From positions 1 to 64,000 of the IMG/VR virus record IMGVR_UViG_3300032286_001614: DNA of 64,000 nucleotides. One strand, 5' to 3'. The translations under genes and the position numbers were made by a program. This document shows positions 17,512 to 54,398 of the stretch, piece by piece (position 1 is the stretch's first letter; each line of letters begins with the position of its first letter). The DNA comes from a virus. The notes below the pieces were generated by a model, which searched no databases, had not been told where the DNA came from, and was given only the letters and a program-made list of their open reading frames with translations.

Positions 17512-18321
17512 TTATTCATACTTTTCTATTAAAATACCATGAATTCTCAATCTATTAGATAAAAATGGATTTGATATAAAAAAGGCATCTGGTATTGGTG
17601 ATGGAGTTCCACTGTTATTAAATGTCGATGTAAAATAACCAGTATCTGGAGATGAATTAAATACAATATTAGCCAAAATTTTTCTCATTTGGCTTAAAGA
17701 TGGAAAATTTATGGCATAAGCAGGAGCACCATTTATCTGAGATTCATAATCATTTATGTTAGACTCCATAATAATAGAATAAGACTGATTTGATGTTCCC
17801 TTATTTTTTATTTTAATTTCCAAACAAAACATATTACAGAAATAAGAATTTAGTCCGCTTTGATTAAAAGTAAAAGGAAGTCGTATTATTTTATAATTGC
17901 TATATGGAACTTGATCATTAAAATTTCCACTGGGCATTATAACCGGAACTGTATAATAAATATCGCATGTTTGAGAATCATTATTTATATCTAATCTAAA
18001 ATCATTTTGAGAATAGTATGGAAAAGCTAAATTTTCACTTCCAACTCCTATATACGAACATTTATTTGGATCAGGATAAAATTCATTATTTGTTTTTATT
18101 CCAAAATGAAAACTTTTTGTATAATCATATCTCTGTAGATCTTTAATTGATTCTTTTTCTAATCCTCCATTTAATTGTGATGAATTGGTTAAAGAAAGCG
18201 CAACTCCAATTCTTATTCTTTCCCAATTTCCAAGATCAAATGGATATAAAAGAAATTCTTTTGAGTCTAAAACCAAACATTTTTCTCCACTTGTCGGAAC
18301 TCTTTCAAAAATTGTTGCCAT
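17512..18321 (-). CDS. Virion-associated protein, tandem paralogue 2, 269 aa
   Basis: Tandem duplicate of 16690-17493, with conserved TIFERVPTSGEKCLVL, SLTNSSQLNG, NNEFYP and RLRIHGILIEKYE. The loop between about residues 100 and 130 is the most different part. Function unknown. Confidence 0.65.
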   Translation of the reverse strand: MATIFERVPTSGEKCLVLDSKEFLLYPFDLGNWERIRIGVALSLTNSSQLNGGLEKESIKDLQRYDYTKSFHFGIKTNNEFYPDPNKCSYIGVGSENLAFPYYSQNDFRLDINNDSQTCDIYYTVPVIMPSGNFNDQVPYSNYKIIRLPFTFNQSGLNSYFCNMFCLEIKIKNKGTSNQSYSIIMESNINDYESQINGAPAYAINFPSLSQMRKILANIVFNSSPDTGYFTSTFNNSGTPSPIPDAFFISNPFLSNRLRIHGILIEKYE

Positions 18322-18322
18322 A

Positions 18323-19483
18323 TTAATAAAAATCTATATAATTAAAATCTAAGAAACTAAAGTCACCAGTGCTAAAACCTTCTCCTGTTGAATACACTTT
18401 AATTACATAACCAATAGTGCTACCTGAAAAAATATCATAACCAGAAACATTTGTTCCATTATTAAAATAATTTTTTATAGAAAAAAAACCAATTGAATTT
18501 CCAGAAATATAACCAGAACTAAAAGATGATTGACCAGTTAGTAATCCTGTCTGATATAAATTTATACTATCATTAAAATAAAAAGTATTATTTTTTGTAT
18601 ATCCAGGAACTTGTTTTAAGTAATAAATATCTTTTGTTTTTCCAATACCGCTATCAAAAGATATTTTATTTCCAGTATTATATATGTTAAAGTCTTCTGA
18701 AAAGAAGTTAAAATATTTTTTTGTAGAAGTAACTTTTATTGTTTGCCCATCACTAGATGAAGAAAGCATTAACAATTGAGCTGGAGGTCTTTGTTGAGAT
18801 TGTTGATTAGATAACCAAAAACTAGATTTAGTAATAAAATCTAGATTATCAAAAGATTCTCCACTAACAACTATTTCATTACTCCATTTTTGAGATCCAT
18901 ATCTTTTCGTTAAAGTATTATTTTTTTTATAAAAGCATGTAAATTGTCCAGTTGCAAAATCAAGATTTCTCCCAGTTACATAATTATAATTATTTAAATT
19001 TACTGAATTTACTAAAGTAGGACATTCACCTTTCCATCCAGTTTGATATACTAATCCACTAATTAAAGAAAAAACTTTAATTTCTGGCTTTCCAACAAAG
19101 CCAACATTAGTATCTCCATTATCTTGAAATGCAATAACTGGATTTCCAGAATTATCAAAACACATTGAAAAATTTCTAAATCTATTTTTATCAGAAGAAA
19201 TTAGTGCATTTCCAAACCAATTTAATTTTGTTCCAGTAAAATTTTTAGTTGGAAATTCATTATTTTGAAGTTTCCTTATTTTAATTTCGTTATTTTGAAA
19301 ATATCCACCCCAAAATCCAGTAAAAAATTGACCACTAGGCAGTGGCACTCCAGTTTGATTTGGTCCAAACGAAACGAAATCATAACCATACGCATTCTCA
19401 AATTTGCCCCAATATTCATAGGGCAAATATTCTTTACCTGTTGGAATATAAGTAATCAAAGTTGAATCCTCTTGTAAAAACAC
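18323..19483 (-). CDS. Fibre-like structural protein, 386 aa
   Basis: Asn/Ser/Gly/Tyr-rich beta protein with many SG and TG turns, like minor tail or fibre proteins. The GTG start overlaps the end of the upstream tube-like gene by 28 bases. No domain recognised. Confidence 0.55.
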   Translation of the reverse strand: MFLQEDSTLITYIPTGKEYLPYEYWGKFENAYGYDFVSFGPNQTGVPLPSGQFFTGFWGGYFQNNEIKIRKLQNNEFPTKNFTGTKLNWFGNALISSDKNRFRNFSMCFDNSGNPVIAFQDNGDTNVGFVGKPEIKVFSLISGLVYQTGWKGECPTLVNSVNLNNYNYVTGRNLDFATGQFTCFYKKNNTLTKRYGSQKWSNEIVVSGESFDNLDFITKSSFWLSNQQSQQRPPAQLLMLSSSSDGQTIKVTSTKKYFNFFSEDFNIYNTGNKISFDSGIGKTKDIYYLKQVPGYTKNNTFYFNDSINLYQTGLLTGQSSFSSGYISGNSIGFFSIKNYFNNGTNVSGYDIFSGSTIGYVIKVYSTGEGFSTGDFSFLDFNYIDFY

Positions 19484-20622
19484 TCTTCTGAAATAAACTG
19501 TTCTCCAAATTCATTTAATCCAGTTACAGATTGACAATAATCAAGAACATATGAATAAGGAGAATTACCATTAAATGCTTCCGTTATATATAAATTATTT
19601 TCTTTAGAGTTAAAATCACTTATATAACCCTTCCATGTAAAAGATCCTAATAATCTATTTGAAATACTAGATGAAAATGAACTTGTAGTTAGTTTCAATC
19701 CTTTTATGAAGTATTCTATAGCTAATAAATCAGTGCATGGTTTTTTTATAATTATTTTTATATCTTTTGCTTTATCAGAACAATCTCTTTTTAATGAATC
19801 AGCTTGTAATTTTGTTAAAATAACATCGGCAGAAAGTTCTACTGCAATAGGCATTTTCATCTGTCTATTAGGAGAATATTTTCCAATAATATAATTTTCA
19901 TCACGTTGAAAATTAATTCTTAATGTAAAATTTTGAATAAGACATGAATTAGATCCAGACATATCTGTAGCAAAACCAAAATCAATTGGAAGTTCCATCA
20001 TTACATCTCCATGAGTAAGTGCGGAAATTTGCTCTGAGAAATCTCCATTATCTTTAAAAAAAGAATTTCCAGAGTATATAGAGAATTTATTATTATAAAA
20101 TTCTCCATCTTGATTTAATGCTGGACTATTTAAATTTATTGGAAGTCCTGTATAAGAATTAACATTTAATGCTTGACCATTTATATTGGAGACTACAAAA
20201 CGTCCAACTTCAGCAGATACTAAGTATTCATTAATAAGACAATTTCCAAGCCCAAAGATATTACAATTATCAAAATTTGAGTAATTTACTTCTTTATTAT
20301 TTTCAGATGCTACAAAATAAACATTTTTTTCTATATTAAGATTTTTGAATATAGAATCACCAGTTCCTTTTAATAAAAAACCAATCTTTTTTTCATTATC
20401 ACCATTTGTAACTAAATAATTATAATTAAAATTTACTATTGGTGGTTTATTTCTTATATCATTAAATGATAAATCTGTATATTGAACTAGATCTCTATTC
20501 ATATCTATAGAAAAATCGCAAGATTGAATTCTTGAGAGTTGTTCTATATCTTTAAATCCAGTTTGAGTAGAAAAACAATCTCCAGAGGAAACAAATAAAG
20601 CTACATTGTAAAAATTATACAC
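19456..20622 (-). CDS. Tail tube-like structural protein C, 388 aa
   Basis: Third, most divergent tube-like protein. The first residues (NVALFVSSG) line up with QAVFISSG and QVKMSSG of the other two, which supports the GTG start at 20622. That GTG sits inside a TGTGTA late-type element, so the element may be fortuitous here or serve the downstream gene. Many Cys residues. Function inferred from paralogy only. Confidence 0.5.
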   Translation of the reverse strand: MYNFYNVALFVSSGDCFSTQTGFKDIEQLSRIQSCDFSIDMNRDLVQYTDLSFNDIRNKPPIVNFNYNYLVTNGDNEKKIGFLLKGTGDSIFKNLNIEKNVYFVASENNKEVNYSNFDNCNIFGLGNCLINEYLVSAEVGRFVVSNINGQALNVNSYTGLPINLNSPALNQDGEFYNNKFSIYSGNSFFKDNGDFSEQISALTHGDVMMELPIDFGFATDMSGSNSCLIQNFTLRINFQRDENYIIGKYSPNRQMKMPIAVELSADVILTKLQADSLKRDCSDKAKDIKIIIKKPCTDLLAIEYFIKGLKLTTSSFSSSISNRLLGSFTWKGYISDFNSKENNLYITEAFNGNSPYSYVLDYCQSVTGLNEFGEQFISEECFYKRIQL

Positions 20623-28444: not shown

Positions 28445-31400
28445 TTACCTAGCAAAGAAAAAAGTAAAAGTCTGAGAAGTATCTTCTTTTGGTAATGTTT
28501 GAGATTCTAAATAAATACGCAAACACCAATTAGCTAACATTAAAGATGAGAAATTATCTTTTTTCGCTCTAGTTTTAGAAGTGCTTCTTTTCATTGATGA
28601 CGGAAGATCAAATGATTGACTGCCACTTGGAGTAGAAGTCACTTCTATTAATGCACATTCTTTTTTAGTTAAATCTATTAAGAAATCTTGATGCTCAATA
28701 AAAGAATATACACTCTCTGAATTTCCATTAGAATCTTTAAAATATGGATGAGTGTCTAATATGTTTGGTTTAAATTTAGACATTTCATCCGCTAATCCAT
28801 CAACGGCACCAGCTTTTCCTGCGAATAATATGTTTTTGTAATCTATACATGCTTGCAAATACTCAGCCGCCATTCTTTGCCAAGAACTTGAAAAGCCTTG
28901 TTTATGAACGATTCTTCTAGCTTGTAAATTATAACTCTTGGCTACTTGTTTAGATATATCAGTTTGATCGTTCTTATTGAATTCAGCATCAATATCCCTA
29001 AGTTCTATACCAGAATCTTTAAATAATTTAGTTTCATTAGCTTGTGCCGTAAATTCATTATCGCCTTGGCTGGCATCAACACCAATATAGACAATATTAA
29101 AATTTGTTAATATATAATGCAAGTAAGCAACGTGGTCTTTATGTGCTCCCCCAGCTACAGCATACGAGTGAACTAACATACCTATTTTTCTATCACCTTT
29201 ATCTACAATTTTTAGAACAGACATTGCAAAATCATCAGAAGCCTCTCCGCTTGATAAAGAAATATCTATACCTAAAACATATTCAGTACCTTTTTCACCA
29301 ACAATCTCAATACAAGGTCTCTGACCGTCTGGAACTGTGCATTCAGCCATTTTAGATGCTTTAAAATATCCAGAACTGTCAGATACGAATATTGCACCAT
29401 ATTCTCTATCAACAACATTTTGTGAAATATCTCCACTTTCCACATCTTTAATTATACCTGGATCTAACAAATCTTTTGGAATAGCTTTGTAACTAACTTG
29501 AGTAACGCTATATGTTGCAACTTTAAGGTCTTTTTCCTCGAAAGTTTCAATATTTTTAAGATATTGTTTATAAACCTTAAATAAATCCTCCCATTGATAA
29601 GAAGCTGAACTTAACAAAATCATTTTAGAAGTAGAGGCGAAAATTTCCCTATCCTCTTCTCTCATGAATCCACGCGAAATCAATTTATCTTCTAATTCAC
29701 GTAGTTGAAGCTTTTCTTTGATGTTACCACCACTTACTAAGAATGGTTTAAGAATGGTTTCTATGATACCAAGACTTAATAATAAAGCTTCGTCAATGAT
29801 TAGTCTTGAGCAGCGTAAACCTCTTAACCCTTCGCCACCAGATAATGGAACAGCTGTAATTGTCGAACCATTAATAAAGGTATATTTAAATATATCATTT
29901 CTACGAGAAAGATCACCTTCAAGACATTGTTTGAAAAGAACACCTTCTGGAGAATTAGATAATTTCTCTAAATTTTCAAGTATTCGACGACTAGAACGAA
30001 AATTTTGACTTACAATAAGAGTATGAGTTCCGGGATTAAAAATGCAATCCAATACAGCCCATAATCCAACTAATGTGCTATTATGGTTTATAAATCCATT
30101 AGACCAATACATTTCACCGTTTGGAACATTAAAGTCTAAGCAATCATGATCAAAATCCTCTATCTCCACAACTTCATCAAAAAAGAAATTTTCTTTTTGA
30201 ATTTCAAGTAGATTTTCATATTTTTTTTCATCAAATCCAGCTTTTTTAGCAAATTCTAAATAATTAGCTAAAGTACTGTAAGACAAATGTTTTTGATTTT
30301 TTGTGCGCCTGATATTATTACGCCATTCGTCAGAAAGAGCTTTGGGTAATCTTTGTCCTGCTTTAATTTCTCGTTGGAAAAATTCTTTTGCACCGGGAAT
30401 AACATCAATATTAGTGTTACGTTTTTTTTCTATATTTGCTCTTGATTGTTTTCTGCTTAAACGAAAACCAATTTTTTTATTAAATATATCTACATTTTCT
30501 CCAGATATATCTATATACCAAGCTTTTCCAAAATTAGATAGTGTTTTTCTTTTATAAAATCTTGAAATAATTCCAAACGATAATAGACTTAAATGAATTT
30601 GCTTTACTAATTCTTCAGAAGTTGAGCAATAACTAATGCCCCCTGTTTTATAACATGTTCCATCCGTATCAAAAAGCCCCATTAAATAAAACTTTAAAGA
30701 CTTCCTACATGCAAGAATTTTTTGCGGAATAACCTTATCGTAAGAAGTTGTTCTTTTTATGTTGTATTTATCAAATAACGGTTTAATTAATTTTGTCGAA
30801 AATTTTATATCAATTGCTTCAGATTTTTTCTTTTTTGTATAACTCATAATCTCCCAATTATTATATACCCAATCAATAATCTCTTGGTCTATAGTTGTTA
30901 AACATGCGCCCGAAGATTTAGAAGTATAAGAACCGTCTCCAGCTAACAATCCTAGAAAATAAGATTCTCTTTCTGAAAAATCACTAAAAGAATAGTTAAT
31001 TTCGTTTCTTGAAATACATACTCTATCTCCATCTTTTATTTCCGAGAATTTTTTCCAAACTATAGAACAAGTTTGGAAGTCTAATACTTTGATTAGGTGA
31101 TTAGTAGAGCCCTCAAGGAAATAACCATTGTTTGTTGTTACCCTTCTACATTTCTTTTTAGGCTGAATATATATTTTATCTGTTTTTTGCCAATCATTTC
31201 CATTCCATAAATAAATAGGATCAATATCTTTCCATCCCTCTATTTCAAAGGATAAATTTGGAAGCAAATCAGTTATTGTAATAATGCCAATATCTTTTGC
31301 AAGTAGTTTAGTGTTATTATGATAACTGAGCGTTTTGCCGCTACCCCTCCCCCAAACAGCTAAATTATAATTGCAATGAAACCAACTTTTTAGCAAGATA

Positions 31401-31582
31401 GCCTGACGAGGATGAAGTTTTACGCCGAATAAAATCTCAATCGTAAACTGAATATTATACATTAAGAATTGTCCAAGCCAATACTTTGCTTTTTCTTCAT
31501 CAAGTTCTCCCTTGAATAAAGCTAATTCTTTATTTATATCTACTATTCCACCTTTATCCCATTGAGGTTCAATCCAAGCCAT
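28445..31582 (-). CDS. terL: Terminase large subunit interrupted by an intein (1045 aa; 627 after splicing)
   Basis: Packaging motor ATPase and nuclease. The Walker A motif is split: WGRGSGK ends at residue 83 and STLVGL resumes at 502, so removal of 418 residues restores GRGSGKSTLVG. Walker B is RLIIDEA. The RuvC-like nuclease starts with LGIDIS and continues with IYIGVDASQGD and a DGLADEMSKF segment. The mature length fits the family. It ends 48 bases before the portal gene and follows the ERCC4-nuclease gene. No separate promoter is visible. Confidence 0.92.
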   Translation of the reverse strand: MAWIEPQWDKGGIVDINKELALFKGELDEEKAKYWLGQFLMYNIQFTIEILFGVKLHPRQAILLKSWFHCNYNLAVWGRGSGKTLSYHNNTKLLAKDIGIITITDLLPNLSFEIEGWKDIDPIYLWNGNDWQKTDKIYIQPKKKCRRVTTNNGYFLEGSTNHLIKVLDFQTCSIVWKKFSEIKDGDRVCISRNEINYSFSDFSERESYFLGLLAGDGSYTSKSSGACLTTIDQEIIDWVYNNWEIMSYTKKKKSEAIDIKFSTKLIKPLFDKYNIKRTTSYDKVIPQKILACRKSLKFYLMGLFDTDGTCYKTGGISYCSTSEELVKQIHLSLLSFGIISRFYKRKTLSNFGKAWYIDISGENVDIFNKKIGFRLSRKQSRANIEKKRNTNIDVIPGAKEFFQREIKAGQRLPKALSDEWRNNIRRTKNQKHLSYSTLANYLEFAKKAGFDEKKYENLLEIQKENFFFDEVVEIEDFDHDCLDFNVPNGEMYWSNGFINHNSTLVGLWAVLDCIFNPGTHTLIVSQNFRSSRRILENLEKLSNSPEGVLFKQCLEGDLSRRNDIFKYTFINGSTITAVPLSGGEGLRGLRCSRLIIDEALLLSLGIIETILKPFLVSGGNIKEKLQLRELEDKLISRGFMREEDREIFASTSKMILLSSASYQWEDLFKVYKQYLKNIETFEEKDLKVATYSVTQVSYKAIPKDLLDPGIIKDVESGDISQNVVDREYGAIFVSDSSGYFKASKMAECTVPDGQRPCIEIVGEKGTEYVLGIDISLSSGEASDDFAMSVLKIVDKGDRKIGMLVHSYAVAGGAHKDHVAYLHYILTNFNIVYIGVDASQGDNEFTAQANETKLFKDSGIELRDIDAEFNKNDQTDISKQVAKSYNLQARRIVHKQGFSSSWQRMAAEYLQACIDYKNILFAGKAGAVDGLADEMSKFKPNILDTHPYFKDSNGNSESVYSFIEHQDFLIDLTKKECALIEVTSTPSGSQSFDLPSSMKRSTSKTRAKKDNFSSLMLANWCLRIYLESQTLPKEDTSQTFTFFFAR
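30080..31333 (-). other. Intein with LAGLIDADG endonuclease in TerL
   Basis: Residues 84-501 of TerL. Block A is TLSYHNNTKLL, aligning with the CLSYDTEIL start of classical inteins but with Thr in place of Cys/Ser. Block B is GSTNHLIKV. LAGLIDADG motifs are LGLLAGDGS (about 210) and LMGLFDTDGT (about 300). The end is GFINHN followed by Ser+1. Insertion at the P-loop means an unspliced TerL would be inactive. Whether Thr1 supports splicing is open; a class 3-like route is another possibility. Confidence 0.9.
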
Positions 31583-32510: not shown

Positions 32511-33624
32511 ATTTAGCTCTTTCTTTTGTTATTCCACCTATGAGTGCAATTACTGATTCCATGTTAGATAACTCATCAACTTCAGTAGCTTCAAGCATTT
32601 TTTGTTTTTCTGCTAATTTGAGTAACTGAATTCTTTTTTCTTCTTGTTTAACGGCATCAATAAGATTAATAATAGTTGCACTTTGTTGTATTCTATCTTT
32701 AATTCTTTTCGATCTATCACCAACAAGTTTCTCTAAAAGACTTTGATATGTTTTTTTTGATTGATTTAATTTATCTCTTTGATTATTAATCGACTCATTA
32801 AAGGTCATTGTTAAGGCTTTCTTTTCAACTCCTTCTCCTTTTAATGCTTCTTCTAACTGATTATCCATCAACTGAATAATTCTTTCTATTTGAGTAATTG
32901 TAACTATCTCAGAGCAAAGTGCAATATAATTATCAACTTCTTCTTCTAGAAGATCTGGTTTATCATAGCAATATCTAATAAATGATGATTCATAAAGATT
33001 TCTATCTGATTCTCTTGTATATTTAGATGCTTGCTGAATAAATCTTTCAGTATACATATATCCTAAAAGAGCTTGTAAATTTTTTATATCAATCGATCTT
33101 AAATCATTTTTATCTAAAACTTTACTTTTATCTCCGTTGAATTTAAAACGATATTTATTTACTCTGGTTACTAATCTATCAATCGAAGTTGGAGGTTGAT
33201 AATCATCCCCATCACTTAATTTTTCATCATCAGGGATTTTATCTGGATCTATTTCCATACAGTAATTATACATAGCCTTAGATTCTGTATGTAATCTAGT
33301 TAATCTCTGATTATTAAAAGCAACTCTGGCTAATTCAAGCCAACTCATAGAACCTAAATTATTCCTAGCAAGTAATTTTTGCTCTGGTGTTAATTCTATT
33401 AAATTATCACCCTTTTCATACTTTGTAGTCTTAATTTTCGCATCAGGATTCATTTGCGAAATATAAGCCTTTATCGCTCTACCTTCTCTTGTAAGACCTG
33501 TAAGATTAATATTATTAAAAGCTCTTTTTGTTAATTCTTTTAAATTTATCTTATCCCAATTTTCATCAAGAAATTTTTTTTGCTCATCTGTTAAAATTAT
33601 TTCTTCTTTTTCAGAATCACTCAT
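32503..33624 (-). CDS. Terminase small subunit candidate, 373 aa
   Basis: The N-terminal region contains two copies of a roughly 45-residue helical unit: LTDEQKKFLDENWDKINLKE...TREGRAIKAYI (about 11-57) and LTPEQKLLARNNLGSMSWLE...HTESKAMYNYC (about 78-122). They look like paired HTH DNA-binding repeats. A long coiled coil follows (about 245-345). DNA-binding repeats plus an oligomerising helix region next to terL fit a small terminase, but no homology was tested. Overlaps both neighbours. Confidence 0.45.
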   Translation of the reverse strand: MSDSEKEEIILTDEQKKFLDENWDKINLKELTKRAFNNINLTGLTREGRAIKAYISQMNPDAKIKTTKYEKGDNLIELTPEQKLLARNNLGSMSWLELARVAFNNQRLTRLHTESKAMYNYCMEIDPDKIPDDEKLSDGDDYQPPTSIDRLVTRVNKYRFKFNGDKSKVLDKNDLRSIDIKNLQALLGYMYTERFIQQASKYTRESDRNLYESSFIRYCYDKPDLLEEEVDNYIALCSEIVTITQIERIIQLMDNQLEEALKGEGVEKKALTMTFNESINNQRDKLNQSKKTYQSLLEKLVGDRSKRIKDRIQQSATIINLIDAVKQEEKRIQLLKLAEKQKMLEATEVDELSNMESVIALIGGITKERAKYG

Positions 33625-34298
33625 TGTATATTTCCTTCTTCAAAAATAATTATTTTAGCAGCTTCAACTATTTTTTTTCTAGTTTTATTTATAGTTTGAT
33701 AACCATAAATATTTGAATTTGTAGCTTGTTTAAATTTTAAAATTTTACCAACTTCTTCCATTGATTTATGCTCAGTAAAAAGCAACTTATATATTTTTAA
33801 CTCTTGTAAAGTTAAATAATTTGGCATTTTTTCATCTAGAAGTTTTTTATAATCATCTATATCTATAAAATCATTTTGTATATTATTAACTTCCTGAATA
33901 TGAGCATCTAAAGACAATCCTTGTTTTATATTATATTCTGATTCTTTTTTTCTTTTCCATTTTTTGAAAAGAGGGCACTCTTCACATTGTTTCCCGCTTC
34001 TAGTAAATCCGCAATAACTATCACCTAAATTAAATTGACAACCTTGAACACATGGCCGTGCAAATTTTTGTAAATTATCACGTAAAATATTTATTATTGT
34101 ATTACTTATAAGTCTATTTACCCAGTGTGTAAATTCCCCTTTTTCTGGATTAAAAGTTTTATATTTATTAAATATTCTAATCAATAACATCTGAGAAACA
34201 TCTTCAAATGCAAGAGATGATAATGTCCAATTTGATTTTCGTTTATTTATTTCCACCATTATTGATGGAATCATTTCTTCAAAAATGGGTTTCTTCAT
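33621..34298 (-). CDS. Phage sigma-like transcription factor with Cys cluster, 225 aa
   Basis: Residues about 30-75 match sigma70 region 2 (FEDVSQMLLIRIFNKYKTFN, FTHWVNRLISNTIINILRD). Residues about 165-215 are region-4-like (LTLQELKIYKLLFTEHKSMEEVGKIL). Between them lies a cysteine cluster (C83, C87, C96, C105, C108) likely to bind zinc. Sigma-like factors of this size direct late transcription in T4-type phages. It is the natural candidate for recognising the AGTGTA elements of this late block; that link is inference. Confidence 0.75.
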   Translation of the reverse strand: MKKPIFEEMIPSIMVEINKRKSNWTLSSLAFEDVSQMLLIRIFNKYKTFNPEKGEFTHWVNRLISNTIINILRDNLQKFARPCVQGCQFNLGDSYCGFTRSGKQCEECPLFKKWKRKKESEYNIKQGLSLDAHIQEVNNIQNDFIDIDDYKKLLDEKMPNYLTLQELKIYKLLFTEHKSMEEVGKILKFKQATNSNIYGYQTINKTRKKIVEAAKIIIFEEGNIQ

Positions 34299-46847: not shown

Positions 46848-47336
46848 TCATTTGCGAGCGGGAAAAAGAGTTTCGTTTTCCTTTACAAACGAATATAATG
46901 TTTGATAAGAATAAAAGTTTAACTCTTTTTCAATCTCCGAAACTTGTTTACCCGCTTTATATAAAGCTTGCGCTTGTTTGATAAAATTTTGCGCTTTCAC
47001 GTTTTCTTTATCATTCAAATCACCTTTGGTAAACTTTACCTTTGAAGATTCTACCTCTTCATTATTCATTCTCCGGCAAATTATTGCGAGGTTTTCAATC
47101 CCGCCTAAAGCGGGTGCAATCTCGCAAAGGATAATGCGGGAAAATTTTTCCTCGTTATTGCCATGAGTTTCCTCATGCTTTCGTTTGGATTCTTCCAAGG
47201 CGGATTCTATAAACTTTTCTGGCAATCCCGCTTCGACAAAAGCTTTTCGCAAACCTTCACCATTGAAAACCGGAGAAGCGGGAATGCTTTTCAAAGCTTT
47301 CATGGCATTAGACAAGGCATTAATAATATCTTTCAT
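46848..47336 (-). CDS. Putative HTH DNA-binding protein, paralogue 1, 162 aa
   Basis: Paralogue of 53907-54398 along its whole length: IINALSNAMKALKSIPASPVF, GLPEKFIESALEE, VKFTKGDLND, ELNFYSYQTLYSFVKEN. The C-terminal part (QVSEIEKELNFYSYQTLYSF) looks like a helix-turn-helix. Residues 85-100 include CEIAPALGGIE. Its stop faces the TACGTA cluster, and its leader is highly structured. A regulator or initiator that binds nearby repeats is a reasonable guess. Confidence 0.65.
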   Translation of the reverse strand: MKDIINALSNAMKALKSIPASPVFNGEGLRKAFVEAGLPEKFIESALEESKRKHEETHGNNEEKFSRIILCEIAPALGGIENLAIICRRMNNEEVESSKVKFTKGDLNDKENVKAQNFIKQAQALYKAGKQVSEIEKELNFYSYQTLYSFVKENETLFPARK

Positions 47337-47794: not shown

Positions 47795-47820
47795 AAGCGA
47801 CTCCTTTTTTGGAGCCGCTT
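47795..47820 (-). terminator. Terminator of 47837-48040
   Basis: AAGCGACTCC / GGAGCCGCTT hairpin with T-only loop; minus strand continues with eight Ts. Confidence 0.8.
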
Positions 47821-47836
47821 GTTATTTAATGATCTG

Positions 47837-48040
47837 TTAGAACAAATTGATCGATATATTCTGACGGTCATCCGATGTTAAACATACGAAATCAAAAAAG
47901 TTTTTTTGAGAAAAAGTCCTCTTTTTTTCTCCAAACTTTTCCGTTATTTTCTTTATTAACGGGAACTTTCCATTTATTACCAAACGATTGGTAACTTTTT
48001 TTCCGGTTGCACCAGCTGATTTTACGATCTTGATTTTCAT
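47837..48040 (-). CDS. Hypothetical early protein, 67 aa
   Basis: The ATG at 48040 is used; an apparent earlier start at 48091 lies downstream of the promoter but within the conserved leader and encodes only leader sequence. Basic protein (KIKIVKSAGATGKKVTNR) with an FDFVCLTSDD end. Own promoter and terminator. Family unknown. Confidence 0.55.
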   Translation of the reverse strand: MKIKIVKSAGATGKKVTNRLVINGKFPLIKKITEKFGEKKRTFSQKNFFDFVCLTSDDRQNISINLF

Positions 48041-48079
48041 TTTGTTTTTTGGTTTTGATAGGTTGGGTTGACGAATAAG

Positions 48080-48107
48080 AACATACATCATTTACGGGTT
48101 AAAACAA
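48080..48107 (-). promoter_or_regulatory. Early promoter TTGTTT-16-TATGTT
   Basis: -35 TTGTTT at 48107-48102, 16-bp spacer, -10 TATGTT at 48085-48080, preceded by an A-tract. Drives 47837-48040; leader contains CAACCCAACC. Confidence 0.65.
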
Positions 48108-48160
48108 GCTTTTTTTTTATTTTTTTAAGTATTATTTTTTTATTTTTTTTAAAAAAATGC

Positions 48161-48322
48161 TTGTTTTTTCCGATGGATATGCTATCTTATTATTCTAGTT
48201 AGGACTTATTCTCCTAGCGTGTGACGGATAAAACCGAACGATTGGGGGACCGGAGGCTGGACTAATTCCTCAAATTGCGGGCACGTTTGGAAAATTATAA
48301 CATATTTTCCTTTTAAAGTCAA
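48161..48322 (+). ncRNA. Structured RNA element, copy 1, with convergent promoters
   Basis: Plus promoter TTGTTT (48161) - 16 bp - TATCTT (48183). RNA from about 48194: P1 TCTAGTT/GGCTGGA, P2 AGGA/TCCT around CTTATTC, P3 CGG/CCG around ATAAAA, then the conserved core AACGATTGGGGGACCGGAGG. U-G pairs in P1 and compensating changes against copy 2 support the plus strand. A minus promoter TTGACT-17-TATAAT (48322 leftward) reads back through the element. Not a family I recognise. Confidence 0.65.
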
Positions 48323-48429
48323 GCTTTTTTTAAAAAAAATTAATTATTTTTTTATTGAAAAATAGTTTTTTATTTAAAGTCAAGCTTTTTTTAAGAAAAA
48401 TATTTAGGGAAAAATTAACGCAAAAAAAA

Positions 48430-48455
48430 TCCCACCCTAAATTAATAGAGCGGGA
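48430..48455 (-). terminator. Terminator of 48473-48748
   Basis: Imperfect hairpin TCCCACCCT / AGAGCGGGA followed on the minus strand by eight Ts. Confidence 0.6.
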
Positions 48456-48472
48456 CTTGTTATTTTATTTTT

Positions 48473-48748
48473 TTAACAAAACTTTGCTTGAGCGGTCCGA
48501 CCCGCAGGAATCCATTTTCCGTTATTTTTATTTAGGATAAAGATTCTTGGAATTCCCTGCTTTATTGCGGGAATAACTTTAACTTTTCCGAGAAAAGATT
48601 CTAGCGTGGAATATATTCCGGTAGGAATAAGAACTTCTTTTCCTTCCAAGTTAAAATCCTTTGGAAGTTTATTCTTATTCCCAGAAAGGATATAACGCAA
48701 ATCTTTCATCCGAACCGGATATTTTGTGAAGGTTTTATAGTTTTTCAT
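48473..48748 (-). CDS. Hypothetical early protein, 91 aa
   Basis: Basic protein (NYKTFTKYPVRMKDLRYILS) with a possible small beta fold (KEVLIPTGIYSTLESFLGKV). Promoter TTGTTT-18-TATTAT and a terminator frame it. Family unknown. Confidence 0.6.
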   Translation of the reverse strand: MKNYKTFTKYPVRMKDLRYILSGNKNKLPKDFNLEGKEVLIPTGIYSTLESFLGKVKVIPAIKQGIPRIFILNKNNGKWIPAGRTAQAKFC

Positions 48749-48792
48749 ATATTTTTGTGTTTTGGTTTTTGTTAGTGGTTAACTGACAATAT

Positions 48793-48822
48793 ATAATATG
48801 CTTTATTTTCAGGAAAAAACAA
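48793..48822 (-). promoter_or_regulatory. Early promoter TTGTTT-18-TATTAT
   Basis: -35 at 48822-48817 and -10 at 48798-48793, upstream of 48473-48748. Confidence 0.5.
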
Positions 48823-48851
48823 GCTTTTTTTTAAAAAAAAATAAAAAAAAA

Positions 48852-48877
48852 TCCCACCCTAAATTAATAGAGCGGGA
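48852..48877 (-). terminator. Terminator of 48888-49232
   Basis: Same hairpin as at 48430 (TCCCACCCT / AGAGCGGGA), followed by a T-run on the minus strand. Confidence 0.6.
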
Positions 48878-48887
48878 CTTAGATTTT

Positions 48888-49232
48888 TTAACAATCAGAA
48901 GAAGATAATGCGCATACTATCAAACTATCTGTATTTTGTTTATAAAGTTTCCTAGCAAACTGCAACGCATCATAAGATTCGTATTTATTGAAACATTGAA
49001 CTTTATATTTATAGTCAAAATATTCGTTATCGAAATAAATCTCAACCGAAAATCCAGTAAGGGAATAATCTCCGATTGCGCGAACTTGAATAGTAAACTT
49101 ATTCCAAACGTAAACTTCGCTATAATGATAATTTGAAGAATCAGAAACTTTATTTACCGAAAACATTTTATTGAATTCGGAAATAAAATCCGTAACGATT
49201 TTTTTATCTTCTTTCGTGAACTGAGGAATCAT
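48888..49232 (-). CDS. Hypothetical early protein, 114 aa
   Basis: Alternating strands (FTIQVRAIGDYSLTGFSVEI, DYKYKVQCF) after an N-terminal helix; ends in SSSDC. Own promoter-like A-tract with TTGTTT (49314-49309) and own terminator. Family unknown. Confidence 0.6.
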   Translation of the reverse strand: MIPQFTKEDKKIVTDFISEFNKMFSVNKVSDSSNYHYSEVYVWNKFTIQVRAIGDYSLTGFSVEIYFDNEYFDYKYKVQCFNKYESYDALQFARKLYKQNTDSLIVCALSSSDC

Positions 49233-49340
49233 AATTTTTATCGGGCTAGGGTTAATTTTGCTAGTTGGTTTTACTTAACGATAAATAATTTACCATATTT
49301 CTGGTAAAAAACAAGCTTTTTTTTAAAAAAATAAAATAAA

Positions 49341-49370
49341 AAAGGCGACTCTTTTTAGAGAATCGCCTTT
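49341..49370 (-). terminator. Terminator of 49380-49571
   Basis: AAAGGCGACTCT / AGAGAATCGCCTTT hairpin; strong and A/T flanked. Confidence 0.75.
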
Positions 49371-49379
49371 TTGTTTTAT

Positions 49380-49571
49380 TTAAACTATAGTTTTCATTCG
49401 TAATTCACGAAGCTTATTTATCATTTCCGCCGCCGACACCCAATTATTTTCTTCTCCGTGAAATTTACTTGAATTCAAATAAATGCAAATATTCGTAAGA
49501 TCCTCTTGAATATCGTGCAATTTATTTTTTAGCTCTTCATTTTCTTTATTTAGGCGGGTGATATAGTTCAT
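49380..49571 (-). CDS. Small coiled-coil protein, 63 aa
   Basis: N-terminal heptads (ITRLNKENEELKNKLHDIQEDL) form a short coiled coil. Promoter TTGATT-16-TATCTT and its own terminator indicate a real gene. Function unknown. Confidence 0.6.
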   Translation of the reverse strand: MNYITRLNKENEELKNKLHDIQEDLTNICIYLNSSKFHGEENNWVSAAEMINKLRELRMKTIV

Positions 49572-49597
49572 GGTGGTTTTGTTGGTTAACGATAAAT

Positions 49598-49625
49598 AAG
49601 ATAACAGATACGTTACCTAAATCAA
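49598..49625 (-). promoter_or_regulatory. Early promoter TTGATT-16-TATCTT
   Basis: -35 at 49625-49620, -10 at 49603-49598; leader GTTAACCAACAAAACCACC precedes the ATG at 49571. Confidence 0.65.
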
Positions 49626-49653
49626 GCATTATTTTAAAAAAATAAAATAAAAA

Positions 49654-49679
49654 ATCCGCTCCTTTTTATAGAAGCGGAT
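49654..49679 (-). terminator. Terminator of 49687-49938
   Basis: ATCCGCTCC / GAAGCGGAT hairpin with A/T loop; minus strand continues T-rich. Confidence 0.7.
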
Positions 49680-49686
49680 ATTTTAA

Positions 49687-49938
49687 TTAAACAAAAAATT
49701 CAAATTTTTTACCCATATAAGGGATTTGGTGAATAGCCCAACTCCACCCTCTTTTATTTAAAAGACAAGTGGACGTTCTAGATAAAACAACTCCATCCAT
49801 TATTTTGTTATCAGCTAATTTTATTTTTTGATATGTCAATTCATATCCACGCTTTGGTAGATTTTTATTTATTTTTCCAGCAGCTTTATCTGAAATAGTA
49901 TAAAAGCCAGAGTCTAAATATTTTGCGGTGAATTTCAT
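49687..49938 (-). CDS. Hypothetical early protein, 83 aa
   Basis: The ATG at 49938 is chosen; the frame extends to 49980 but that part is promoter and leader. Contains GVVLSRTSTCLLNKRGWSWA and an aromatic end. Divergent from RNA element copy 2, as 47837-48040 is from copy 1. Confidence 0.55.
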   Translation of the reverse strand: MKFTAKYLDSGFYTISDKAAGKINKNLPKRGYELTYQKIKLADNKIMDGVVLSRTSTCLLNKRGWSWAIHQIPYMGKKFEFFV

Positions 49939-49968
49939 TTTTATAGGTGGTTTGGGTTGACGAATAAA

Positions 49969-49996
49969 ACCATATATCATTTGCAGGCTAAATCAA
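49969..49996 (-). promoter_or_regulatory. Early promoter TTGATT-16-TATGGT
   Basis: -35 at 49996-49991, -10 at 49974-49969; leader has CAACCCAAACCACC. Confidence 0.6.
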
Positions 49997-50047
49997 GCTT
50001 TTTTTTAATTATTTTAATTATTTTTTTTATTTTTTTTAAAAAAACAC

Positions 50048-50212
50048 TTGTTTTTTTCTATTAGTGTGCTATTCTATTTTTCTAGTCAAGGTTTATTCCC
50101 TTGGCGTGTGACCGATAAAACGGAACGATTGGGGGACCGGAGGCTAGACTTTTTTTTTAAAATAAAAAATAGTTTGGAAAATTATAACATATTTTTTATT
50201 TTAAATCAAGTA
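50048..50212 (+). ncRNA. Structured RNA element, copy 2, with convergent promoters
   Basis: Plus promoter TTGTTT (50048) - 16 - TATTCT (50070). P1 TCTAGTC/GGCTAGA (50081-50087 with 50142-50148), P2 AAGG/CCTT, P3 CCG/CGG around ATAAAA, core GGAACGATTGGGGGACCGG. P2 and P3 differ from copy 1 at both sides of pairs, keeping pairing. Minus promoter TTGATT-17-TATAAT at the right end reads back. Confidence 0.65.
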
Positions 50213-50237
50213 TTTTTTTTATTTTATTTAAAAAATT

Positions 50238-50263
50238 TTCCCCAACAAATTAATGTCGGGGAA
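50238..50263 (-). terminator. Terminator of 50279-50431
   Basis: TTCCCC / CGGGGAA hairpin followed by Ts on the minus strand. Confidence 0.7.
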
Positions 50264-50278
50264 TCGTTTTTTTAAGAA

Positions 50279-50696
<418 letters not shown>

Positions 50697-50705
50697 GACG
50701 CTATA

Positions 50706-50733
50706 AATCTAGCAAATACGGCAGGTAAATCAA
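50706..50733 (-). promoter_or_regulatory. Early promoter TTGATT-16-TAGATT
   Basis: -35 at 50733-50728 and -10 at 50711-50706, close to the ATG at 50696. Confidence 0.5.
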
Positions 50734-50772
50734 GCTTTTTTTAATTATTTTAATTATTTTTTTTAAAAAAAT

Positions 50773-51030
50773 TTAAATTAATTCAATCTTTCTATATTCC
50801 AATTTAAACTGTTTAATTCCCTTATACTTTTCTTTTAACTTGGGAATATAAGAATTCGCCTGTGCTTTTGTTTCAAATTCCGTGGCCAAACTCCATGCAA
50901 ATTCGCACATAGAAAAATTTTGAGTCGGCGAATTAATAAAATAAAGATTACGGCGGCAATTAATATCTGTTTTCCCAATGATTGCGAAAACATATTTAAA
51001 TTTTTTATTTCTATTTTTATTTTTACTCAT
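50773..51030 (-). CDS. Hypothetical early protein, 85 aa
   Basis: Basic start (KNKNRNKKFKYVFAIIGKTD), then FAWSLATEFETKAQANSYI and a charged C-terminus. Resembles other tiny phage proteins with a beta-beta-alpha outline. Promoter TTGTTT-16-TATCTT upstream. Unknown function. Confidence 0.6.
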   Translation of the reverse strand: MSKNKNRNKKFKYVFAIIGKTDINCRRNLYFINSPTQNFSMCEFAWSLATEFETKAQANSYIPKLKEKYKGIKQFKLEYRKIELI

Positions 51031-51063
51031 ATTTTTTTGCGGTTAATGGTTGGCTGAATCTAT

Positions 51064-51091
51064 AAGATAGCATAAACAACGAATTAAACAA
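51064..51091 (-). promoter_or_regulatory. Early promoter TTGTTT-16-TATCTT
   Basis: -35 at 51091-51086, -10 at 51069-51064. Lies just beyond the 3' end of the large RNA. Confidence 0.6.
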
Positions 51092-51114
51092 GCTTTTATT
51101 TATTTAATTTTAAT

Positions 51115-51758
51115 TAAAATTAATTTTGCTGCAATATCTGGGTTAACCTAAAACTTTTTAAGGCTGCTGCGTAGGAAATTAAATACAATTTCCCCCTTTA
51201 AATAAAAAGGGAGAAAAGTTATATTATTTACCTGAGTTAACCTTTTTTAAGGTGTGGTGAGGTTTCATTATATAGCAGGGCAACTTATGATTTTTAATCA
51301 TTCAATATTTTATTTATCGCTCAAAACTTACCTCTAAAGCGCGATTGATATTTTTAATTATCAAACGAAATATTGTCCTTATCCGTAGATAAAAGGTCGG
51401 GGGTCAGATATTTAAATTATTAATTTAAATTTTTGATTCATCCCTGCAATGGCATTTATTTATTATTAGCTACGCTAATTTAGTAAAAATAAAATAGTTT
51501 TTTAATTTTCCTAGAATTTGCATTTCGCAGGACTAGGGCACGAAGAAACTTAACTTCGCTGCATTATTTTAATGCCCTTGTAACTCTCCTTATCTTTTCA
51601 GCGCACCCGCTATCATCACGACATGAGGTTTAATTATTTCTAATTCGCTTACTTTCAGAAGTGCCTTCCAATTTTCATTGGATTGGACTTAATCTTTACA
51701 AGTAGATTGTTAAACAGTTAAATTAACCAAAAAGAACTAATTGATCCCGAGTATCAAT
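51115..51758 (-). ncRNA. Large structured non-coding RNA, about 640 nt
   Basis: No credible ORF on either strand. Promoter TTGACA-18-TATTAT (51795-51766) puts the start at about 51758, exactly where the first hairpin begins (51740-51758). Further hairpins read 5' to 3': 51668-51681 and 51632-51645 (both with GAAA loops), 51600-51611, 51541-51558 and 51561-51575, 51510-51537, 51466-51478, 51377-51396 (UACG loop in C-G closing), 51345-51364, 51287-51301, 51240-51253, 51194-51211, 51174-51193. GNRA and UNCG loops appear only on the minus strand. Two segments share GGTTAAC(T/C)CAG. Size and style recall the ornate phage RNAs GOLLD and ROOL, but I could not match either. The 3' end is estimated. 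Confidence 0.7.
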
Positions 51759-51765
51759 CATAAGT

Positions 51766-51795
51766 ATAATACACCTTATTCCTAATAAATGTCAA
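51766..51795 (-). promoter_or_regulatory. Strong sigma70-type promoter of the large RNA
   Basis: Consensus TTGACA at 51795-51790, 18-bp spacer, TATTAT at 51771-51766. Confidence 0.75.
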
Positions 51796-51802
51796 AGTTT
51801 TT

Positions 51803-52321
51803 TCAAATATTTTTAAGAATCTCTACATATTTTTTTCCCCTGCCTCCGGTTTGCTTATACCAGCGCGAATCTTTTAATTCCGCCGCCGCTTTATTATAAT
51901 CTTTCTTTTCAATTGCCGCAGTAAAATCTTTGAATTTTTTAATTCTATTTGGCCCCAGATTGTAAGCTAGGCTTATTAATATTATTTGAACATTTTGTGG
52001 TTGCGAATTGAAAGATTTAAACTGTTTATGCGCAATCTGTTCTGCGATTTTTACATCCTCTTTTAACCATTTATTAAGTAAACAATTATCAATATTTTGC
52101 CCAACCTTATACTTATCTTGTAAACCCTTAGATTCTAAATTTGTTCCGCCACCAACAGTTTTATGTCCAGTCGGGCAAATATATACTTTATTGCTCCATC
52201 CTTCGTATTTAATAATATGCGTTTTAATATTATCGAATGAAGGCGCGGCATTAATAATAGACGCGCCGCCAATAATAATACCGATTGAGATAAGTTTAAG
52301 ATTTTTATAGAATGTTTTCAT
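51803..52321 (-). CDS. Exported endolysin, GH24 lysozyme, 172 aa
   Basis: N-terminal hydrophobic segment (ISIGIIIGGASIINAAPS) is a signal peptide or signal-arrest-release anchor. The muramidase core has Glu40 in KYEGW, Cys49 and Thr55 in YICPTGHKTVGGGTN, the E-8-C/D-5-T triad of phage lysozymes, then SLAYNLGPNRIKKF. It cleaves peptidoglycan at lysis. Read into the large RNA's promoter region. No holin is next to it. Confidence 0.88.
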   Translation of the reverse strand: MKTFYKNLKLISIGIIIGGASIINAAPSFDNIKTHIIKYEGWSNKVYICPTGHKTVGGGTNLESKGLQDKYKVGQNIDNCLLNKWLKEDVKIAEQIAHKQFKSFNSQPQNVQIILISLAYNLGPNRIKKFKDFTAAIEKKDYNKAAAELKDSRWYKQTGGRGKKYVEILKNI

Positions 52322-52345
52322 ATAATTTATTTAATTTAACTTAAT

Positions 52346-52564
52346 TTATTCTGCGCGATAAATTTCCAAAGATTCCCACGATGGAATATCATAAGGGGAA
52401 CAAACTTCCTTATTCCTTTCCTTACGAAATTGCATTTCCTTATTATAACTTGCGCGACTAACAATAATATTTCCGCCGCCGCCATAAGGCAAAAGACGAA
52501 CTTCTTTAGAAACAACTCCGTAGTCATCAATAAAAGAATTGATGGTTGATTTAATATTTTGCAT
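52346..52564 (-). CDS. Hypothetical protein, 72 aa
   Basis: Contains LLPYGGGGNIIVSRASYNKEM and a charged end. Preferred over the overlapping frame at 52336-52530, which lacks its own start region. Lies 13 bases downstream of 52578-52778, so the two are probably one transcript leading to the endolysin. Confidence 0.55.
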   Translation of the reverse strand: MQNIKSTINSFIDDYGVVSKEVRLLPYGGGGNIIVSRASYNKEMQFRKERNKEVCSPYDIPSWESLEIYRAE

Positions 52565-52577
52565 ATGATTCGTTTTA

Positions 52578-52778
52578 TTAATTGGTGTGATTCAAGAAAA
52601 TTTTATATCCTTTATTATTAACAAGAATTTCCACTTCCTCACTCGTTACTTGCGAAATGCTCGCAAAGTTTCCAGCAAGTTTCCTAGAAAGATTCTCGGC
52701 GAGAATAATATCTTTAGAATTAATAACTTGAACAAAATTCCCGAAGGAATGATTTACTGCGAAGTAATAATTTTTCAT
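52578..52778 (-). CDS. Hypothetical protein, 66 aa
   Basis: Beta strands (NYYFAVNHSFGNFVQVI) then a helix (ILAENLSRKLAGNF), a pattern shared by several of the small early proteins. Promoter TTGAAT-17-TATTCT at 52838-52810. Unknown function. Confidence 0.6.
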   Translation of the reverse strand: MKNYYFAVNHSFGNFVQVINSKDIILAENLSRKLAGNFASISQVTSEEVEILVNNKGYKIFLNHTN

Positions 52779-52809
52779 AACGATGTGGTTTTAAGTTAAC
52801 TGAGCCAAT

Positions 52810-52838
52810 AGAATACGTTAAAATTAGGTATTATTCAA
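52810..52838 (-). promoter_or_regulatory. Early promoter TTGAAT-17-TATTCT
   Basis: -35 at 52838-52833, -10 at 52815-52810; leader contains GTTAACTTAAAACCAC. Confidence 0.5.
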
Positions 52839-52872
52839 GTAAATAATTAAAAAAAATTCATGCCTTAATATT

Positions 52873-52971
52873 GACTTACGTAATTTTGCAAATTAATTGC
52901 GTTTTAAAGTTTACCTATGAAAAAGTGTTTTTTTTCACTGGGTTTTAATAAAACCGAAAATTACGTAAGTC
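52873..52971. repeat. 15-bp inverted repeat enclosing two hairpins
   Basis: GACTTACGTAATTTT and its exact complement AAAATTACGTAAGTC, separated by about 70 bases that contain AGTG(T8)CACT and GGTTTTAATAAAACC hairpins. Each arm includes a TACGTA. Confidence 0.75.
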
Positions 52972-53006
52972 ATTTAGATTTTTTTTAATTTTCTTTAAAA
53001 AAAAGC

Positions 53007-53196
53007 TTGTTTTCTTCTTTGGATATGCTATCTTATTTCCATCGACAGGACTTGTAAGGGGCCAAATTAATGAAACCCCATCTCTCCTGAAAGATTTGAC
53101 CTTTAAAACGGAACGATTGGGGGACCGGAGGCTACGCAAATTTCTTGGGGCACAAGCCCGTTTGGAAATTTTACCACAAAAAAACTTTAATGTCAA
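53007..53196 (+). ncRNA. Structured RNA element, copy 3, with convergent promoters
   Basis: Plus promoter TTGTTT (53007) - 16 - TATCTT (53029). P2 AGGA/TCCT is lengthened by an inner GGGG/CCCC hairpin. The core GGAACGATTGGGGGACCGG is identical to copy 2. P1 is weak here. A GGGC-ACAA-GCCC hairpin follows (53147-53159). Minus promoter TTGACA-17-TAAAAT at the right end reads back. Confidence 0.6.
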
Positions 53197-53840
53197 GCTT
53201 TTTTTTAATTTTTTTTCTGAAATAAAAGAATACCCCTTCCCGCCCTTGGGAAAATATATTATTCCTAGAGCTTGTCAAGCCTATTTTTAAAAAAAATGAT
53301 ACGTATTAATACGTATTTTTAAATAAAAAAAATGCTTGACTTATTTATAATTAACTATATATGCGAATTTTCAAATAGTGATTTTTTAAAAAAAGTCAAG
53401 AATAAAATTAATTATTTTTTTAACCTAAAGATCAGCCCCAGCCCCACCCTGGAAAAATATACTATTTTGCGTAAATGTCAAGCATATTTTTTTATTATTT
53501 TTGCGCTTATATTTATTATTTTTATTAATGTCAAACATATTTTTTAAAAAAAATTTTGTTTATATTTATTATCTAAATTATTGTCAAGCATTTAATTAAA
53601 TTATTTTTTAAGAATTAAGTCCGCCCCAGCCCCACCCCGGAAGTAAATCATAAAACGGTTTGCTTGTCAAGCATATTTTTTATTTATTTTTTTTATTTTT
53701 TTAAAAATTATCTTGACATTATTATTATTTCTGTTATACGCAAATTTAATGAAATTGCGCATTTTAACACAAAATTTAATAAAAGTCAAGCAATTTTTAA
53801 ATTATTTTTTGCCTTATATATTATTATAAATTAATGTCAA
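53191..53840 (-). promoter_or_regulatory. Array of nine minus-strand promoters without a gene
   Basis: TTGAC(A/T) boxes at 53196, 53278, 53399, 53481, 53534, 53587, 53670, 53789 and 53840 (5' ends), each with an A/T-rich -10-like hexamer 16-17 bp on. Spacings are 82, 121, 82, 53, 53, 83, 119 and 51. The three 82-83-bp intervals each hold a G-rich block (53233-53250, 53433-53452, 53621-53640). No coding sequence is seen in the stretch. TACGTA occurs at 53300 and 53310. Confidence 0.55.
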
Positions 53841-53867
53841 ACAATTATTAAAAAAAATATATAATAA

Positions 53868-53906: not shown

Positions 53907-54398
53907 TTAATTACGCTTAGGAAAAATTTCTTTATTATCACGAATAAAACTATTCAGCGTCGCATAAGAATAGAAATTTAATTTTTCCACAATTTCACTA
54001 ACTTGCTGATTATTATCATTATAAAGAATCTTAACTTTATCTAAAAAGTTTTGGGATTCTTTATTATTTAAATCAGACAATTCTTTAATAGTGAATTTGA
54101 CCTTAGAATTTTCAATTTGCTCATTTTTAATTGTGCGAATTAAAGAAGAAAACTCTTCGATCCCACCCAGAACAGGAATAATTTCATTAAGAATAATACG
54201 AGCGATTTTCTGAGTATTATCGCCGTGAATTTCATTATGTTTATTACGCAATTCTTCAATTGCGCTATTAACAAACTTTTCTGGCAATCCCATTTTAGAA
54301 AATTCAGCTTTAATATTGCTATCGTCAAAAATTGGCGATGCAGGAATATTTTTAATATTCTTAACGGAGTTTTGCAGGGCATTAATAATTTCTTTCAT
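53907..54398 (-). CDS. Putative HTH DNA-binding protein, paralogue 2, 163 aa
   Basis: Paralogue of 46848-47336 (IINALQNSVKNIKNIPASPIF, GLPEKFVNSAIEEL, VKFTIKELSDL, KLNFYSYATLNSFIRDN). Same putative C-terminal HTH. As with paralogue 1, TACGTA sites lie on its 3' side. Leader has CCAATTT/AAATTGG (54441-54469) pairing. Duplicated regulator candidate. Confidence 0.65.
   Translation of the reverse strand: MKEIINALQNSVKNIKNIPASPIFDDSNIKAEFSKMGLPEKFVNSAIEELRNKHNEIHGDNTQKIARIILNEIIPVLGGIEEFSSLIRTIKNEQIENSKVKFTIKELSDLNNKESQNFLDKVKILYNDNNQQVSEIVEKLNFYSYATLNSFIRDNKEIFPKRN

What the first reader, a model, noticed from the sequence alone, without database searches (positions are those of the whole stretch)
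48161..53196. Three-copy structured RNA element with an invariant GC-rich core and convergent promoters
Copies at 48161-48322, 50048-50212 and 53007-53196 share a 16-bp-spacer plus promoter, P2 and P3 stems with compensating changes (AGGA/TCCT versus AAGG/CCTT; CGG/CCG versus CCG/CGG), U-G pairs supporting the plus strand and the core GGGGGACCGGAGG. A minus-strand TTGAC/T-17-TATAAT promoter at each right end would make an antisense RNA. Copies 1 and 2 are divergent from two small genes with matching leaders. I do not recognise the RNA; it could be a regulatory RNA, riboswitch-like sensor or sense/antisense control circuit.
Basis: partly seen in the sequence, partly recalled or inferred. Interest (0 to 1): 0.8.

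Follow-up and report, generated by a model that had tools for sequence, protein, structure and literature searches.

The report
Self-opposed small RNA genes in phages
A large phage and a distant relative each carry two or three copies of a compact element that looks like a gene for a small folded RNA with a second promoter aimed straight back at it; what the RNA acts on is not known.

Summary
Three copies (48161, 50048, 53007) share a plus promoter, hairpins P2 and P3, an invariant 23-nt core and a strong minus promoter. A sequence model built from these three alone picks out exactly two places in the 172-kb relative G001 (E 2e-9 and 6e-9), in a syntenic region. Sequence drifts while the plan is kept: P3 covaries, both promoters persist, and the distance from the core to the minus start is exactly 26 nt in 5 of 5 copies. 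The core is identical within a phage but differs in blocks between phages, as expected of a recognition segment matched to a phage- or host-specific partner. Rfam families, tRNA/tmRNA, a conserved reading frame and a riboswitch or leader role were tested and not supported. Best reading (inferred): a small non-coding RNA with a dedicated convergent antisense transcript, working like the E. coli SdsR/RyeA pair, acting in trans through its core. Against: only two phages, no transcript data, ordinary folding energy in 4 of 5 copies, no target found in either phage. A new phage RNA family of a known regulatory kind; function open.

The parts
48161..48188 (+). copy 1 plus promoter TTGTTT-16-TATCTT with TGC before the -10
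   Evidence: read; listed
48199..48217 (+). copy 1 hairpin P2 (TTAGGA/TCCTAG, loop CTTATTC)
48225..48236 (+). copy 1 hairpin P3 (CGG/CCG)
48236..48258 (+). copy 1 invariant core, 23 nt
48259..48284 (+). copy 1 spacer of fixed length, 26 nt, between core and GTTTGGA
48294..48322 (-). copy 1 minus promoter TTGACT-17-TATAAT, TG before the -10
50048..50075 (+). copy 2 plus promoter TTGTTT-16-TATTCT
   Evidence: read; listed
50085..50105 (+). copy 2 hairpin P2 (GTCAAGG/CCTTGGC, loop TTTATTC)
50112..50123 (+). copy 2 hairpin P3 (CCG/CGG)
50123..50145 (+). copy 2 invariant core
50146..50171 (+). copy 2 spacer, 26 nt
50181..50209 (-). copy 2 minus promoter TTGATT-17-TATAAT, TG before the -10
53007..53034 (+). 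copy 3 plus promoter TTGTTT-16-TATCTT
   Evidence: read; listed
53046..53089 (+). copy 3 hairpin P2 (CAGGA/TCCTG) with a 34-nt inner part
53100..53111 (+). copy 3 P3, only 2 pairs (CC/GG): the weakest P3 of the five
53111..53133 (+). copy 3 invariant core
53134..53159 (+). copy 3 spacer, 26 nt
53168..53196 (-). copy 3 minus promoter TTGACA-17-TAAAAT, TG before the -10

Best explanation
Each copy is a stand-alone gene for a small structured non-coding RNA (about 70-125 nt, ends not known). It is read from a promoter of the phage's early type, on the strand opposite to the surrounding genes, and is paired with a dedicated antisense promoter that starts about 90-120 bp away and runs back over the whole RNA. 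The sense RNA would act in trans through its phage-specific core, most likely by base pairing, otherwise by binding a protein. The antisense transcript would limit it by duplex formation and decay and by colliding RNA polymerases, as in the E. coli SdsR/RyeA pair. Shown here: sequence anatomy, conservation of both promoters, covariation of P3, fixed core-to-antisense spacing, core identity within but not between phages. Inferred: transcription, trans action, antisense damping. Unknown: the target.
For: A model from the three window copies finds exactly the two elements of G001 in 172,181 bases, E 2.3e-9 and 6.2e-9, in a syntenic region. P3 is recovered with both-side changes on an unguided alignment; P2 forms in all five copies with different sequences and 3 G-U, 0 A-C on the plus strand. 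Both promoters are kept in 5 of 5 copies. The core-to-antisense spacer is 26 nt in 5 of 5 although its sequence diverges. The core is 19/19 within a phage and 12/17 between phages. The layout matches SdsR/RyeA (PMC6610125, passages). No reading frame is shared, and no Rfam match.
Against: No transcript data. Only two phages. Four of five copies do not fold better than shuffles. Promoter-like sites are as frequent as chance in the region as a whole. The CCAAAY-ending minus motif was defined from these copies. No complementary target in either phage above shuffled cores. No clear intrinsic terminator for the sense RNA in all copies. The hand alignment was fitted to the structure.
Confidence: 0.45

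Rival explanations
1. RNA decoy or mimic: the core imitates or sequesters a host RNA or RNA-binding protein, for example a defence component, as RNA anti-CRISPRs imitate CRISPR repeats. Several copies raise dosage, and the core differs because the hosts differ.
For: Core identical in all copies of one phage, different between phages; stand-alone promoter; several copies. Solitary repeat units in viral genomes often sit just downstream of a promoter (PMC10651486, passages).
Against: An exact 19-nt core occurs only twice in 84,980 species genomes, one match each, no array (my chance estimate is about two). A decoy does not need an antisense promoter at fixed distance.
Confidence: 0.2
2. A cis-acting DNA or transcription device: two opposed promoters at fixed distance from a core that acts as a protein site, RNA polymerase roadblock, or R-loop primer for replication; the RNA itself is a by-product.
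For: Exact 26-nt spacing with poor sequence conservation suits DNA geometry; G-rich core; a dense array of further promoter-like sites next to copy 3.
Against: Covarying P3 speaks for an RNA; no GC-skew turning point at the elements.
Confidence: 0.17
3. put-like cis antiterminator RNA acting on the RNA polymerase that made it.
For: Two hairpins directly downstream of a promoter, as putL in HK022 (PMC9378689, passages).
Against: No convincing gene follows on the plus strand to be antiterminated; read as minus RNA, the G-U pairs of P2 would become A-C mismatches.
Confidence: 0.08
4. A small peptide gene: a plus frame reads MT(D/F)KTERLGDRRL across the core of the three window copies.
For: Three differences next to the core (ACG/ACC, ACC/ACG, CTG/CTA) are synonymous in that frame (read).
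Against: The frame stops after 14 codons in copy 1 but stays open in copies 2 and 3; the same core frame is stopped in copy B and not alike in copy A; no shared start codon; third positions inside the core never vary. Two of the three changes are explained by P3 pairing.
Confidence: 0.04

Closest known systems
SdsR/RyeA, mutually cis-encoded small RNAs of E. coli (PMC6610125, passages read)
   Same: A short trans-acting small RNA wholly covered by a convergent antisense small RNA from a sigma-70 type promoter; no protein encoded.
   Different: One chromosomal copy there, two or three copies here; no shared sequence known to me; here the distance from a fixed core to the antisense start is constant; expression and targets untested here.
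Phage and plasmid antisense RNA controls such as ColE1 RNA I/RNA II and P1 c4 RNA (recalled, apart from a c4 passage in PMC12197685)
   Same: Overlapping or complementary structured RNAs control each other.
   Different: No replication origin, immunity gene or target site identified near the elements; both partners here appear to be non-coding.
HK022 put RNA (PMC9378689, passages read)
   Same: About 70 nt, two hairpins just downstream of an early phage promoter, more than one copy per phage.
   Different: No gene follows on the same strand; a conserved opposed promoter is present.
RNA anti-CRISPRs, Racr (PMC10651486, passages read)
   Same: Small phage non-coding RNA with its own promoter and a host-matched segment.
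   Different: No CRISPR-repeat match found; folded shell and antisense promoter are conserved.

Membership tests
SdsR/RyeA-type mutually antisense small RNA pair | Two opposed promoters so placed that one RNA is wholly covered by the other | tested here: met
   Both promoter sequences in 5 of 5 copies, opposed, about 90-120 bp between predicted starts; sequence only
SdsR/RyeA-type mutually antisense small RNA pair | Both RNAs are made and lower each other | not testable with these tools
   needs RNA-seq and promoter mutants
SdsR/RyeA-type mutually antisense small RNA pair | Sense RNA regulates other RNAs in trans | tested here: inconclusive
   no complementary site above shuffled cores in G000 or G001; host unknown
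Any Rfam 15 family | Match to a curated covariance model | tested here: not met
   0 at gathering scores in the window; no relaxed match overlaps a copy
tRNA or tmRNA | ARAGORN prediction | tested here: not met
   none in the window; in G001 bases 1-20000 only a tRNA-Leu away from the elements
HK022 put RNA | Two hairpins close downstream of a phage promoter | tested here: met
   P2 and P3
HK022 put RNA | Lies ahead of genes read on the same strand | tested here: not met
   convincing genes around the copies are on the minus strand
RNA anti-CRISPR (Racr) | Similarity to a CRISPR repeat of a host | tested here: not met
   core 19-mer: two single matches in 84,980 species genomes, no array; exact matches only, host not identified
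Riboswitch or mRNA leader | Upstream of a gene on the same strand | tested here: not met
Small peptide gene | One reading frame open and alike in all copies | tested here: not met

The most novel reading that the evidence does not exclude
A new class of phage RNA device: a self-antagonised small RNA module with a conserved shell (two opposed promoters, P2/P3 with a possible switch to a P2-core helix, and a fixed 26-nt distance to the antisense start) and a replaceable recognition core that is kept identical in all copies of one phage and is re-targeted between phages of different hosts.
Probability: 0.25. Interest if true: 0.75.

Novelty: new variant of a known kind. Interest (0 to 1): 0.5.

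Why it matters
If transcribed, these would be phage small RNAs that come with a built-in antisense promoter and in several copies per genome. The split between a drifting shell and a phage-specific core gives a concrete way to look for the target: whatever is complementary to, or bound by, the core in each host. It also gives a small RNA family of large aquatic phages that Rfam lacks.

Tried and rejected
Exact core in IMG/VR: 21-mer 0 hits, 17-mer 0 hits. G001 core pattern: only G001, 2 sites. Promoter-pair pattern in IMG/VR: 40 stretches, one being G001; the other 39 were printed and read by eye, lack the core and the second promoter, and look like chance. Portal relatives: 80 records searched with the five-copy model, 50 and 30; besides G001 two weak hits (G038, E 7e-4; G042, E 0.016) overlap predicted genes and lack the features, so they were dropped. 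A minus-start pattern in the same 50 records hit 14 of 50; only the two places in G001 look like the element. Named phage records by blastn: copy 1, best E 0.6; copy A, one 31-nt match at E 0.04; neither followed. MoxR alignment search: four distant ATPases, no new carrier. Genome collection: two single core matches, taken as chance without looking at their surroundings. Trans target in either phage: none above shuffles. A CRISPR-spacer reading of the fixed 26-nt spacer was dropped because copies 3 and A are alike there and copy 2 is low-complexity. A closing stem P1 can be drawn in copies 1 and 2 and a different one in copy A; not shared by all, so not claimed. A loop-loop contact between P2 and P3 can be drawn in copies 1, 2 and B only; not claimed. 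GC skew shows no turning point at the elements.

Full report
What was checked. The window is bases 1-64000 of a 71,745-base IMG/VR phage record, G000. A DNA search of the whole record with copy 1 returns copy 2 at 77% identity and only the plus promoter and the core of copy 3. The core pattern is found 3 times and never in 100 shuffles.

A second phage has the element. A search with a MoxR-like ATPase of the window found one relative, a 172,181-base contig G001, 85% identical in that protein. Comparing ORFs of both records gives 23-85% identity along the genomes, about 40% for portal, terminase and capsid-like proteins. G001 carries two elements, A at 9485-9658 and B at 10328-10490. The independent test is a sequence-only model built from the three window copies (R2): over all of G001 it returns exactly B (E 2.3e-9) and A (E 6.2e-9) and nothing else up to E 10. 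E-values of such models are rough. In both phages a related coiled-coil gene (37%) lies between two of the elements, and a phage lysozyme gene lies beyond the second one; G001 has two lysozyme genes and the one beside B is the weaker match, 38%. The five-copy model finds no further copy in G000 or G001.

Anatomy. From left to right: a plus promoter TTGTNN-16-TAYYYT with TGC before the -10; 51-80 nt holding hairpins P2 and P3; the core; a spacer of exactly 26 nt in all five copies; RTTTGGA; then an opposed promoter with a 17-nt spacer and TG before its -10. The plus promoters resemble those in front of many minus-strand genes. The opposed promoter motif ending in CCAAAY occurs exactly five times in the two genomes, once per element, but I wrote the motif from these copies.

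Structure. In a hand alignment P2 has 5-7 pairs and P3 has 2-4 pairs per copy, with different sequences; wobble pairs in P2 are G-U three times and A-C never, as read on the plus strand. That favours the plus strand, on few events. Column shuffles of this alignment never reach its RNAalifold score, for either strand (0 of 300 each), but the alignment was fitted to the structure, so this is weak. On an unguided MAFFT alignment of all five copies RNAalifold recovers P3, two of its pairs with changes on both sides in 2 and 3 sequences, and also an alternative helix between the 3' strand of P2 and the G-run of the core, again with both-side changes; it does not recover P2 there. A 5-6 pair version of the alternative helix can be written in all five copies. 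P2 and this helix exclude each other, so the RNA may switch; that is inference. Against a very stable RNA: only copy A folds better than shuffles (z -3.15); copies 1, 2, 3 and B have z -0.07, -1.36, +0.59 and 0.00.

Core versus shell. Within each phage the 19-nt aligned core is identical, between phages 12 of 17 aligned letters agree. Without gaps, GATTGGGGGACCGGAGGCTACGC of copy 3 and GAGGTAGGGATTCGACCCTACGC of copy A differ in four short blocks. The 26-nt spacer of copy 3 matches copy A of the other phage (18 of 26, z 5.8) better than copies 1 or 2 of its own phage; in the 5' part, by contrast, A and B are closest to each other (z 6.4), as are copies 1 and 2 (z 10.5). So the shell is not ortholog-like throughout. 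The simplest reading is that the core is held to one sequence per phage by a partner shared by all copies; gene conversion is the alternative.

What it is not. Rfam gives nothing at gathering scores, and no relaxed match overlaps a copy. ARAGORN finds no tRNA or tmRNA here. No reading frame is shared by all copies. No convincing gene follows on the plus strand. The core is not an exact 19-nt match to any recurrent sequence in 84,980 species genomes: two single hits, about what I estimate for chance. Complementary sites in G000 or G001 do not exceed those of shuffled cores.

Mechanism. The closest working model I read is the SdsR/RyeA pair of E. coli: a 104-nt trans-acting small RNA wholly covered by a convergent sigma-70 antisense RNA, each leading to degradation of the other, plus transcriptional interference (PMC6610125, passages). 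I propose the same logic: the plus RNA is the effector with the core as recognition segment, and the minus RNA, from the better promoter, limits it. The constant 26-nt distance between core and antisense start fits either a fixed 5' part of the antisense RNA or fixed DNA geometry, which keeps the cis-device rival alive. Shown: anatomy and conservation. Inferred: expression, trans action, damping.

Reach and limits. Of 80 portal relatives searched (50, 30) only G001 has the element; most records are fragments of a few to some tens of kilobases, so absence says little. IMG/VR scans found no third carrier. Literature listings and passages of a 2025 review of phage-derived small RNAs (PMC12197685) and of a cyanophage with several non-coding RNA genes (PMC9964418) show nothing that I recognise as this element; the library holds open-licence papers only.

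Verdict. A sense/antisense RNA locus is the best-supported reading; a riboswitch is not supported. It is a new family with an unusual layout within a known kind of regulation. Interest 0.5.

Noticed in passing
53190-53850, minus strand: A gene-free stretch with about nine TTGAC-type promoter-like starts 50-80 bp apart on the minus strand, two followed by GGGGTGGGGCTGGGGC-like G-rich sequence and one by CCCAAGGGCGGGAAGGGG.
   Followed up: partly
53713-53789 and 53336-53399: Two further opposed promoter-like pairs placed so close that their predicted starts nearly meet.
   Followed up: no
51090-51800, minus strand: About 700 bases without a convincing ORF just downstream of the lysozyme gene, headed by TTGACA-18-TATTAT at 51795 (11 of 12), with local minus-strand fold z of -2.7 and -3.5; possibly a longer non-coding RNA. 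No convincing likeness to the matching gap of G001.
   Followed up: partly
28445-31582, minus strand: Terminase-like protein interrupted by an intein with a LAGLIDADG_3 domain; the G001 counterpart is shorter (627 aa).
   Followed up: partly
33621-34298, minus strand: A protein with a Sigma70_r2 domain, perhaps a late sigma factor of the T4 gp55 kind (recalled).
   Followed up: no
46848-47336 and 53907-54398, minus strand: Two look-alike genes of unknown family (no Pfam or PHROGs match) flank the element region; a 72% relative lies in L005.
   Followed up: no
50279-50482, minus strand: Small ORF with a run of 13 asparagines made by a trinucleotide repeat.
   Followed up: no
47800-51030, leaders of small minus-strand genes: Many small genes have their own promoter and a leader like GTTAACCAAC with no evident Shine-Dalgarno sequence (read), a hint about the host.
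   Followed up: no
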